Origin: Nitrososphaerota archaeon
GTDB taxonomy: Archaea > Thermoproteota > Bathyarchaeia > Bathyarchaeales > Bathycorpusculaceae
Direction of reading: 5' to 3'
Length of the DNA: 41,752 bases
Assembly (NCBI GenBank): GCA_031274765.1
Contig: JAISPR010000117.1
Coordinates: 1-41,752 of the forward strand
The translations under genes and the position numbers were made by a program. Under the pieces are notes generated by a model that was not told the origin of the DNA, did not search any database, and was given only the letters and a program-made list of their open reading frames with translations. How positions within the stretch are numbered: the stretch's first letter is position 1; every line of letters starts with the position of its first letter. Of this stretch, positions 8,401-35,829 are shown one piece after another.

Positions 8401-8834
8401 GTTAAAATTTATCGATACGTTAGTGTGTTTTATGGAAAAGAGAGTTTCTTTTTGAGAGTTCATTGTGTTTAGCACTGTAGGTTTCATTACCTAAATTTCC
8501 AGAAAATTATATGCGTATAAATTTTAAAATATTAATAAAAAATCAAACCAAACATATAACCGCAACAATACACAAAAAAACATAACATACCACAAACATA
8601 AGCACATAACCACAATACCAAATTATATGCTCAAACAAACACCAACACACCACAAACAACCAACAAACCAAAAATTAACCAACACCCAAAAAATTCCCCC
8701 CTACCAAAACATCAACCAACAACACACAAAACACCACATAACACACCAACAACCCAAAACCCCACCTACAAAACCAACAAACAAACACCCAAAACCACCC
8801 CAAAACCTAAACCAACCCAAACACACACCCACCA
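8401..8834. repeat. A/C-only tract (G-free on plus strand)
   Basis: The intergenic DNA becomes almost pure A and C. Positions 8630-8834 contain no G for 205 bases and hardly any T, although C is abundant. The complementary strand therefore has many GG, GGG and GGGG runs separated by T-rich spacers and could form G-quadruplexes. The A/C frame over 8627-8851 has a composition (Thr, Gln, Pro, Asn, Lys) dictated by the bias, so it is not counted as a gene. The tract leads directly into the repeat at 8835. Confidence 0.6.
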
Positions 8835-8936
8835 GACTATCCAAAAACTAGCAAAAAACCCAGAAAAACAAAAAAAGAACACAAATTCTCCGCCTGTTTA
8901 CACCAAAAACACAAAAATTATAGTTTTTAAACAGTT
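8835..8936 (+). repeat. R1 dispersed repeat, copy a
   Basis: An element of about 100 bp whose ends are imperfect inverted repeats: GACTATCCAAAAACTAG at the left and, read from the right end inward, AAACTGTTTAAAAACTA. The interior matches the copy at 28911 in CACCAAAAACACAAAAAT-type segments but is worn. The bases before it (ACCCACCA) are the same as before the copy at 28911. It looks like an old MITE. Confidence 0.55.
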
Positions 8937-8986
8937 TCCCCCACAAAACCCCAAAACCACAACACAAACAACCACACCAAATACAC

Positions 8987-13675: not shown

Positions 13676-13775
13676 CACAAATAGATAATTGTTGATTGAG
13701 TTTTAGCAAAAATATCAAAGGTGTGAACAGGTTCTTGTATAAGATGACCAACAAATTATAGAAGGTAATTGCTAA

Positions 13776-13995
13776 CCTTAATGGCGCAAATTATAGGGTA
13801 ATACAATGTTCTCCGTTTGTTATTGTGTTCTTTTTCGAGAAACAAGCACAATTGGCGTATAAAGCAACTTACGATGTATTACCCTATTACCGTAATGCCG
13901 CAAATGGCTTTTTTAGCGTCAATCGGGCTTATTTTTCAGAAAAAAACGTGACCATGAGGTTTAAGATATGTATCCCAAAAGCTAGACCGGTAAGG
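13776..13995 (+). mobile_element. MITE-A, copy 1 (220 bp, uninterrupted)
   Basis: This stretch matches the reverse complement of 35352-35750 almost base for base, once an insertion in the other copy is removed. The two ends are imperfect inverted repeats: both begin CCTTAA and both carry GGGTAATACA about 20 bases inward. TGCTAA occurs immediately before the left end and immediately after the right end, a likely target-site duplication. There is no coding capacity. It lies in the intergenic space upstream of the secreted-protein gene and downstream of dinB. Confidence 0.8.
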
Positions 13996-14162
13996 TGCTA
14001 AAAAAACTCATATTCTTAAGAAGCTCGGATTAACTATTAGTTCATGTTTTTGACGCCTAATTATTTTGCCTTTTTTAATAAAAAATCCGCAACAATGCAG
14101 CATTATTTATTTTTGACCACCCAAACAGAAAATACATAAAACACCGTCACACGCTTCAAAAA

Positions 14163-28871: not shown

Positions 28872-29125
28872 TCAGACTGCACAAAGACCCAAATATTTTT
28901 CAACCCACCAAACTGTCCAAAAACTAACAAAAATCTCAAAAAAAAAACAAAAAAACGACTGTTTTCTCTGTCCATTTCCGCCAAAAACACAAAAATCCTA
29001 TTTTTTAAACAGTCACCCACCCCAAAAACATCAACAAAAACCAAAAAAACAACCCCACCACCCAAACCCAAAAAACACAAACCCCCAGACGGCACAAAAA
29101 CTAACAAACCCTTGAAAAACTAAAA
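28872..29125 (+). repeat. R1 dispersed repeat, copy c, with A/C-rich flanks
   Basis: The core 28911-29014 (104 bp) begins AACTGTCCAAAAACTAAC and ends in TTTTTTAAACAGTC; read inward from the right the end is GACTGTTTAAAA, so the ends are inverted repeats. ACCCACCA precedes it and ACCCACCC follows it, possibly a 7-bp target duplication. The 30 bases at 28872-28901 (TCAGACTGCACAAAG...) match 37405-37434 at 27 of 30 positions. The downstream flank to 29125 has four C runs that would form a G-quadruplex on the minus strand. Confidence 0.65.
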
Positions 29126-29180
29126 AGAACAACAGCTCAATTACATAAATACGTTAACCAGAACAGAGACAAAAATAAAG

Positions 29181-34425: not shown

Positions 34426-35166
34426 TTGAAGAACCAGCCCCTAGAAAAAGAGTTATCGATCCTGTTACCAGCCTATAATGAAGCAGCACAAATTAAGCCT
34501 TGCATACATGCAGTAGAAGTAGCCCTTCAAACCTTTTGCAAATCCTATGAGATAATAGTCTCTGAAGACGGCAGTACTGATGGCACAGACAAAATTGTTG
34601 CCGCCTTGGCGAAATCAAACCCTAACTTGGTTCTGCTACATTCACCTCTACGACTAGGCAAAGGTAGAGCCATCAAAAACGCGGTTAATGCGGCTAGGGG
34701 CAGATACATCGCATTTATGGATGTAGATTTAGCCACAGACCTTGTTTGTTTACCCAAACTCTATGAGGTTGTCAAGTCTCAGGGCGGGATGGCCATCGGT
34801 TCGCGGCATATAAAGGGTTCAAAGGTGCAGCGTCAACCTATGCGAACATTATTTAGTTTAAGTTACAATATTTTTGTGCGTGTTCTCTTTTTTGATGGTG
34901 TCCGTGATCATCAGTGTGGTTTCAAAGTTATGAGTCAGAGCACTGCAAACGTGGTGCTTGGGGGTTCTTTTTCGGATGGCTACTTTTTTGATACGGAGAT
35001 GATTATTTGGTGTAAACGCTTAGGTTATCCTGTGACTGAGGTGGCGGTGACTTGGCGAGAGAAAAATAAAGGCGGCTCCAAAGTCAACCCGGCTCGGGAT
35101 AGTAGAAAAATTGCCTGGGATATGCTTATGTTTAGATTTAATCGCCAGAAAACAAGTCTTAAATAA
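34426..35166 (+). CDS. Family 2 glycosyltransferase (dolichyl-phosphate sugar synthase type)
   Basis: Adds a sugar from a nucleotide donor to a polyprenyl phosphate or other acceptor. The GT-A motifs are LSILLPAYNEAAQI at the N-terminus, SEDGSTDGT, the metal-binding FMDVDLATD (D-x-D), and a RDHQCGFKVM acceptor-site segment, all typical of DPM/Alg5-like enzymes. The best start is TTG 34426, five bases after a perfect GGAGGT site, giving 246 aa beginning MKNQPLEKE. An upstream GTG at 34375 follows a TATA-like box and would add 17 residues. There is no membrane segment. It may make the polyprenyl-linked donor used by the PMT-like enzyme at 9825; that is inference. It is divergent from the six-gene operon. 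Confidence 0.88.
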   Translation: MKNQPLEKELSILLPAYNEAAQIKPCIHAVEVALQTFCKSYEIIVSEDGSTDGTDKIVAALAKSNPNLVLLHSPLRLGKGRAIKNAVNAARGRYIAFMDVDLATDLVCLPKLYEVVKSQGGMAIGSRHIKGSKVQRQPMRTLFSLSYNIFVRVLFFDGVRDHQCGFKVMSQSTANVVLGGSFSDGYFFDTEMIIWCKRLGYPVTEVAVTWREKNKGGSKVNPARDSRKIAWDMLMFRFNRQKTSLK

Positions 35167-35351
35167 AATATTGACAGTGGACCAATTTAGAATAGTTAGT
35201 TTAGTGAAGAACAAATGCACACGTTAACTCATACTTGATTGACAAATTCTTCAAGGTTTGAAAAGAAAGTCACCTTAATTCAGGGACAGCCCATGAGCAT
35301 CTGACCTGTAAAAAAACTATTCGATGTTGGCACCTATCAGAATATTTAAAA

Positions 35352-35750
35352 CCTTAACCGTCTATTTTTGGGGTAATACATATCTTAAACCTCAGGGTCA
35401 CGTTTTTTTCTGAAAAATAAGCCCGATTGACGCTAAAAAAGCCATTATGCGGCATTACGGTAATAGGTAATACATCGTAAGTTGCTTTATACGCCAATTA
35501 GTGGTTACTACTCAGCAGATTCCCACTATATAGTGTTCTTACAGTAAAATAGTTCACACATAGGGTTATTCTTATTTGCCTTATTTCATAACCATAATTT
35601 TGCAGAAAAACCGCTATACATAACGGTTTACGAGTAAAAAATAACGCTATATGCCCCTGCTGAGTAGTAACAATTAGTGCTTATTTCTCGAAAAAAAACA
35701 CAATAACAAACGGAGAACATTGTATTACCCTATAATTTGCGCCATTAAGG
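35352..35750 (-). mobile_element. MITE-A, copy 2, interrupted by MITE-B
   Basis: Inverted copy of 13776-13995. Without the insertion at 35504-35671 and its duplicated target it is about 223 bp. It begins CCTTAACCG and ends CATTAAGG, imperfect inverted ends, and TTTAAAA is found on both sides, a possible 7-bp target duplication. Differences from copy 1 are scattered single bases and small indels, so both derive from one element. There is no coding capacity. Confidence 0.82.
35504..35671 (+). mobile_element. MITE-B (168 bp) inserted in MITE-A
   Basis: The ends are perfect 15-bp inverted repeats, GTTACTACTCAGCAG and CTGCTGAGTAGTAAC. The element is flanked on both sides by the direct repeat AATTAGTG (35496-35503 and 35672-35679), an 8-bp target-site duplication. 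Copy 1 of MITE-A has the empty site (AATTGTG) in a single version. It has no coding capacity, so it depended on a transposase elsewhere. No second copy is in the window. Confidence 0.93.
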
Positions 35751-35829
35751 TTTAAAAAATATTTAATTAAAATATCAAGGGCTCAACAATGTCGGGAGAT
35801 TTGATGTGCTTTACCTTCGAATAAAGGTT

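What the first reader, a model, noticed from the sequence alone, without database searches (positions are those of the whole stretch)
35352..35750. Nested MITEs with both target duplications and an empty reference site
A 220-bp element (MITE-A) is present twice in inverted orientation, 21.6 kb apart. The right copy has been entered by a 168-bp element (MITE-B) with perfect 15-bp ends and an exact 8-bp target duplication (AATTAGTG); the left copy keeps the uninterrupted site. This gives a clear order of events and shows that non-autonomous elements have been active in this archaeon. An 8-bp duplication should help identify the source transposase.
Basis: seen in the sequence. Interest (0 to 1): 0.72.

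Follow-up and report, generated by a model that had tools for sequence, protein, structure and literature searches.

The report
Archaeal miniature transposon inside another
In the genome of an uncultured bathyarchaeon, a 168-base piece of parasitic DNA that cannot move by itself has jumped into an older one; its ends and its 8-base footprint show that it borrows the transposase of IS66-type insertion sequences, so this is a clear new example of a known kind of thing.

Summary
MITE-A occurs twice in the window: 13776-13995 on the minus strand, and 35352-35750 on the plus strand. The right copy is split by a 168-bp MITE-B (35504-35671) with perfect 15-bp inverted ends and an exact 8-bp duplication, AATTAGTG. 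One correction: the left copy's empty site reads AATTGTG, one base short, but it and ten MITE-A copies in related genomes lack MITE-B at that point.

MITE-B has about 20 copies in this genome. Eleven of 30 copies (own and related genomes) have 8-bp flanks alike within one mismatch, against 3 of 870 mispaired controls. The source is an IS66-family element of the ISBst12 group: a congeneric genome carries a 1715-bp IS66 element with GTTACTGCTCAGCAGG ends and an 8-bp duplication, and published ISDge4 ends (GTGACTACTCAGCA) differ from MITE-B's in one base. Matching IS66 ends lie at collapsed contig edges of the window's own genome.

MITE-A makes 7-bp duplications (TTNNNAA) and occurs in five related genomes; its source was not found. 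The genus is Bathycorpusculum (Bathyarchaeia). Nesting recurs: MITE-B also sits in a third element, and other short elements sit inside MITE-B. This is a well-supported new member of a known kind.

The parts
35504..35671 (.). MITE-B, 168 bp, IS66-type (ISBst12-group) ends GTTACTACTCAGCAG, 15/15 inverted
35496..35503 (.). 8-bp target duplication of MITE-B, left copy (AATTAGTG)
35672..35679 (.). 8-bp target duplication of MITE-B, right copy (AATTAGTG)
35352..35503 (+). MITE-A, right copy, 5' part (end CCTTAACCG...GGGGTAATACA; its last 8 bases are the MITE-B target)
35672..35750 (+). MITE-A, right copy, 3' part (ends ...TGTATTACCC...TTAAGG)
35345..35351 (.). 7-bp target duplication of MITE-A right copy (TTTAAAA), left side
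35751..35757 (.). 7-bp target duplication of MITE-A right copy (TTTAAAA), right side
13776..13995 (-). MITE-A, left copy, 220 bp, uninterrupted by MITE-B
13769..13775 (.). target duplication of MITE-A left copy (TTGCTAA on the + strand)
13996..14001 (.). other side of the left MITE-A duplication (TGCTAA; one T missing)
13848..13854 (-). empty MITE-B target site in the left MITE-A copy (AATTGTG; one base short of AATTAGTG)

Best explanation
MITE-B is a non-autonomous derivative of an IS66-family (ISBst12-group) insertion sequence. An IS66 transposase made elsewhere in the cell recognises its 15-16 bp GTTACTACTCAGCAG(G) ends and inserts it into A+T-rich DNA, leaving an 8-bp duplication. In the window it entered an older miniature element, MITE-A. 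MITE-A belongs to a different family, with about 30-bp imperfect CCTTAACTGC...GGGTAATACA ends and 7-bp TTNNNAA duplications, and was inserted earlier and independently at two places 21.4 kb apart. Shown by sequence: ends, duplications, copy number, empty sites, order of events, and an IS66 element with nearly the same ends in the same genus. Inferred: that the IS66 transposase acts in trans on MITE-B, that the left part of MITE-B descends from the downstream end of the IS, and that a separate unidentified transposase moves MITE-A.
For: Family: 27 matches, about 20 copies, of MITE-B in the own genome, with relatives in three other genomes of the genus. TSD: 7 copies with exactly 8 bp and 11 of 30 within 1 mismatch, against 3/870 mispaired controls; no excess at other lengths. 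Source: an IS66 element in congeneric G004 (L107 99-1813, 1715 bp; TIR GTTACTGCTCAGCAGG 16/16; TSD GAATAATG), with DDE_Tnp_IS66 (PF03050, E=2.7e-17) and an IS66-like N-terminal part. Relatives of that transposase at 46-56% identity in Bathycorpusculum grumuli, Firmicutes, Synergistales and Oscillospiraceae carry the same kind of end just past the gene. ISDge4, ISBst12 group, has TIRs GTGACTACTCAGCA/GTAACTGCTCAGCA and an 8-bp duplication, and its transposition was observed (PMC12898284). Own-genome IS ends GTTACTACTCAGCAGGTAGTTTTTGTGTAAACAC, identical over 118-119 bp at the edges of three contigs, and matching the upstream end of the G004 IS. Subterminal TAGTGTTTTTAC(A/T)GC shared by MITE-B and the downstream IS end (0-8 of 500 shuffles as good). 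Independent second case: the MITE-B copy in C12 interrupts a third repeat whose uninterrupted copy lies in C78.
Against: No IS66 transposase domain is found in the assembled own genome; the explanation that its copies were lost as collapsed repeats in this 170-contig assembly is inferred from three identical contig edges. The G004 transposase reading frame is broken into two frames, so that copy may be dead. Most of MITE-B between its ends has no visible relation to the IS. Most MITE-B copies without an exact duplication have no recognisable one.
Confidence: 0.9

Rival explanations
1. MITE-B is moved by an IS1-family transposase (abundant in this genome; 8-9 bp duplications are usual for IS1, from general knowledge) and its likeness to IS66 ends is coincidence.
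For: 19 IS1-domain matches in the own genome against none for IS66; an IS1 remnant lies about 1 kb from one MITE-B copy.
Against: None of the IS1 genes is bounded by the MITE-B end. The end is 15/16 identical to the ends of a real IS66 element in the same genus and one base from ISDge4's.
Confidence: 0.03
2. The repeats are conserved regulatory or structural RNA/DNA elements at fixed places rather than mobile elements.
For: In the window they lie between genes; both fold slightly better than shuffles (z about -2), as any element with inverted repeats would.
Against: Copies have unrelated immediate flanks, target duplications and empty sites; no Rfam match.
Confidence: 0.02
3. MITE-A and MITE-B use the same transposase.
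For: Both are short, A+T-rich and found in the same genus.
Against: Different ends (CCTTAACTGC versus GTTACTACTCAG) and different duplication lengths (7 bp TTNNNAA versus 8 bp).
Confidence: 0.02
4. The nested structure is an assembly error that joined two repeats.
For: The genome is a fragmented MAG whose repeats collapse at contig edges.
Against: The exact 8-bp duplication, intact MITE-A on both sides, unique flanking genes and a second independent nested case would not arise from a chimaera.
Confidence: 0.02

Closest known systems
ISDge4 (Deinococcus geothermalis; IS66 family, ISBst12 group; PMC12898284)
   Same: 14-bp end GTGACTACTCAGCA differs from MITE-B's GTTACTACTCAGCA at one base; 8-bp direct repeat
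   Different: ISDge4 is autonomous, bacterial, with a 449-aa transposase; MITE-B has no gene and sits in an archaeon
IS66-family element of Candidatus Bathycorpusculum acetigenerans (G004 contig C4; named record L199/WQVG01000004.1)
   Same: GTTACTGCTCAGCAGG ends, 8-bp duplication GAATAATG, downstream subterminal motif shared with MITE-B
   Different: 1715 bp with an IS66 transposase gene (frame broken); only the ends and a short subterminal motif resemble MITE-B
MITECca01 of the Cardinium endosymbiont (PMC9769881)
   Same: Short gene-less element, about 240 bp, recognised by sharing TIRs and a few subterminal bases with a parental IS
   Different: Parental IS is IS982 (ISCca4), not IS66; bacterial endosymbiont
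MITEs of archaea (Sulfolobus, Halobacterium, Haloquadratum and others; listed in the review PMC10969869)
   Same: Same kind of thing in the same domain of life
   Different: None of those named there is from Bathyarchaeia, and the review's main text does not mention IS66

Membership tests
MITE (non-autonomous miniature inverted-repeat element), MITE-B | short, no transposase gene | tested here: met
   160-168 bp core, no gene; variants of 268-392 bp are explained at least in part by insertions
MITE (non-autonomous miniature inverted-repeat element), MITE-B | terminal inverted repeats | tested here: met
   15/15 in the window copy; 54 occurrences of the end with up to 2 mismatches in the own genome, against 2 of the reversed control pattern
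MITE (non-autonomous miniature inverted-repeat element), MITE-B | target-site duplication and multiple copies at unrelated sites | tested here: met
   8 bp; 11/30 within 1 mismatch against 3/870 control; unrelated immediate flanks apart from other repeats
IS66 family (ISBst12 group) as source of MITE-B | ends match those of an element that encodes a DDE_Tnp_IS66 transposase | tested here: met
   G004 element, PF03050 E=2.7e-17, ends GTTACTGCTCAGCAGG
IS66 family (ISBst12 group) as source of MITE-B | 8-bp target duplication | tested here: met
   IS copy GAATAATG; MITE-B copies; ISDge4 8-bp DR
IS66 family (ISBst12 group) as source of MITE-B | single transposase ORF, no tnpA/tnpB | tested here: inconclusive
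   In the G004 element only the transposase is recognised, split over two frames; tnpA/tnpB models were not run on every frame
IS66 family (ISBst12 group) as source of MITE-B | transposase mobilises the MITE in trans | not testable with these tools
   needs an experiment
IS66 family (ISBst12 group) as source of MITE-B | autonomous element present in the same genome | tested here: inconclusive
   No PF03050 match in the own assembly, but three contigs end inside identical IS66-type ends
MITE, MITE-A | inverted ends, target duplication, multiple sites | tested here: met
   about 30-bp imperfect TIR, 7-bp TTNNNAA duplications in most copies, copies in 6 genomes including the own
MITE, MITE-A | identified parental IS | tested here: not met
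   Gapped pattern of its end over 32 genomes found 5 places and no long element

The most novel reading that the evidence does not exclude
Composite miniature elements made by nesting have themselves moved as units. In contigs C118 and C73 a ~98-bp element (ends GGCAACCTCCGAAAA) sits at the same position and orientation inside MITE-B, while each composite has its own perfect 8-bp duplication at a different site (GTTCAAAC, GACAAATT). Nesting between several miniature families would then be a way in which new, larger non-autonomous elements arise in this genus.
Probability: 0.5. Interest if true: 0.42.

Novelty: new member of a known kind. Interest (0 to 1): 0.33.

Why it matters
It gives a clean example, ordered by nesting, of non-autonomous transposition in an uncultured archaeal genus and ties it to a named transposase family, so a two-component assay (ISBst12-group transposase plus MITE-B ends) can be built. 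Ends of the same kind on related IS66 transposases in bacteria and in these archaea suggest an element family that crosses domains. It does not change current understanding of MITEs.

Tried and rejected
IS1 as source: 19 IS1 domains in the genome, none bounded by the MITE-B end. Direct search for IS66 transposase in the own genome: none. TIR-A in IS1 and IS66 loci and a gapped TIR-A pattern across the genus: only MITE-A copies, plus one solitary end in G027. Reading the C55 element as an intact IS66: its N-terminal part is decayed and interrupted by another repeat. Empty site of the left MITE-A by synteny at dinB in the other genomes: nucleotide similarity ends at the dinB stop, so no base-level empty site could be read. 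Rfam and tRNA searches of the window: nothing.

Full report
Observation. The window holds two inverted copies of a ~220-bp repeat (MITE-A), at 13776-13995 (minus strand) and 35352-35750 (plus strand). The right copy is interrupted at 35504-35671 by a 168-bp element (MITE-B) with perfect 15-bp inverted ends and an exact duplication AATTAGTG on both sides. Taking out MITE-B and one duplication copy gives a sequence identical to the left copy at 212 of 218 aligned bases. The only inaccuracy in the finding is that the left copy's site reads AATTGTG, one base short. Ten further MITE-A copies in congeneric genomes also lack MITE-B there.

MITE-B is a family. The own genome (2.5 Mb, 170 contigs, 95.6% complete) has 27 matching stretches, about 20 copies, most 160-168 bp long. 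The 15-bp end occurs 54 times with up to two mismatches, against 2 for the reversed control pattern. Relatives occur in three other genomes of the genus (G021, G026, G027). In 30 delimited copies, 7 have an exact duplication of 8 bp and 11 have at most one mismatch in 8; pairing flanks of different copies gives 3 in 870. Apart from one 12-bp and one 4-bp match, no other duplication length of 4 bp or more appears. Targets are A+T-rich (74%).

Source of MITE-B. Three contigs (C12, C139, C147) end inside an identical 118-119-bp stretch that finishes in the MITE-B end; this is the mark of a collapsed longer repeat. Older copies of the same end occur in C55, C87 and C100. The C55 copy led to a 1715-bp element in congeneric genome G004. 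It has GTTACTGCTCAGCAGG at both ends (16/16), an 8-bp duplication GAATAATG, and a transposase with the IS66 DDE domain (PF03050, E=2.7e-17), its frame broken in two. The same locus is in the named record of Candidatus Bathycorpusculum acetigenerans. Related transposases, 46-56% identical over the larger aligned stretches, are found in B. grumuli, a Firmicutes MAG, a Synergistales genome and an Oscillospiraceae MAG; where the end could be read, it is of the same kind and lies just past the gene. The literature match is ISDge4 of Deinococcus geothermalis, ISBst12 group of IS66, with ends GTGACTACTCAGCA and GTAACTGCTCAGCA and an 8-bp direct repeat (PMC12898284). MITE-B also shares a subterminal motif TAGTGTTTTTAC(A/T)GC with the downstream end of the G004 element (0 to 8 of 500 shuffles score as well), and the B. 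grumuli element has a similar stretch there. No PF03050 match exists in the own assembly; I infer that the autonomous copies were lost as unbinned repeats.

MITE-A. It is also a genus-level mobile family, with 11 matches in G004, G020, G021, G027 and G031. Its ends are imperfect inverted repeats, CCTTAACTGCCCA...GGGGTAATACA. Reading the flanks gives 7-bp duplications, mostly of the form TTNNNAA: TTTAAAA in the right window copy; TTACTAA, TTTCTAA, TTTGTAA and TTAAAAA in others; ATCCAAA as an exception to the pattern; and TTAGCAA with one base lost in the left window copy. The two window copies therefore inserted independently. A gapped pattern over 32 genomes found no long element with these ends, so its transposase is unknown.

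Nesting is frequent. The MITE-B copy at C12:16744 interrupts another inverted-repeat element (CAGACTGCGCAAAA...), whose uninterrupted copy lies near a MITE-B copy in C78; joining the flanks with one 8-bp copy removed restores the site. Conversely MITE-B has been entered by a ~98-bp element (GGCAACCTCCGAAAA ends) in C118 and C73, at the same position, and in C53, at another position in the opposite orientation. In C44 it was entered by an element with GGTTATTCGTCAAA ends and a 7-bp duplication CTTATTT. C118 and C73 each have their own perfect 8-bp duplication, which suggests that a composite moved as a unit; independent insertion at one hot spot is not excluded.

What it is not. No Rfam family or tRNA lies in the window. 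The gene next to the left MITE-A copy, dinB-like (PF00817), is found in 29 of 32 genomes, but similarity ends at its stop codon, so MITE-A is not part of a conserved unit there. IS1 elements are numerous but none carries the MITE-B end.

Taxonomy. The genus is inferred to be Candidatus Bathycorpusculum, because G004, a member of the window's genus, matches the named record at 100%. The genus is described from termite guts, soils, sediments and digesters in PMC10684969. Only one paper in the library names the genus, and it does not mention insertion sequences or transposases.

Verdict. The tools add the source family (IS66/ISBst12 group), the second duplication class (7 bp), the genus-wide spread and recurrent nesting. 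It is a well-supported but ordinary kind of finding.

Noticed in passing
G000:C118:43079-43347 (L013 1377-1645), C73:2541-2808 (L019 1501-1768), C53:23129-23396 (L018 1327-1594): A ~98-bp element with ends GGCAACCTCCGAAAA sits inside MITE-B, at the same place in two copies and elsewhere in a third; two of the composites have their own 8-bp duplications.
   Followed up: partly
G000:C44:34691-34997 (L015 1501-1807); C55:10475 onward; C99, C165, C83, C147, C159, C39, C111: Another dispersed repeat with ends GGTTATTCGTCAAAACAGGTGGGT, about 139 bp, ~90% alike in many contigs; 7-bp duplication CTTATTT where it entered MITE-B.
   Followed up: partly
window 35166-35338: A further dispersed repeat directly upstream of the right MITE-A copy (70-72% matches to flanks of repeats in C72 and C49).
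   Followed up: no
window 8825-8979, 28901-29057, 29078-29152; also C55 and C100: A ~150-bp intergenic repeat (CAAAAACTAGCAAAAAACCCAGAAAAAC...TTCTCCGCC.GTTT..CGCCAAAAACACAAAAAT...GACAGT) recurring between genes in A/C-rich low-complexity DNA.
   Followed up: no
L199-L204: IS66 transposases with GTTAC(T/A)G-type ends in Bathycorpusculum and in Firmicutes, Oscillospiraceae and Synergistales at about 46-56% identity: possible spread across domains.
   Followed up: partly
own genome, 19 places (for example G000:C142:3854-4210): Many IS1-family transposase genes, mostly broken or at contig edges.
   Followed up: partly
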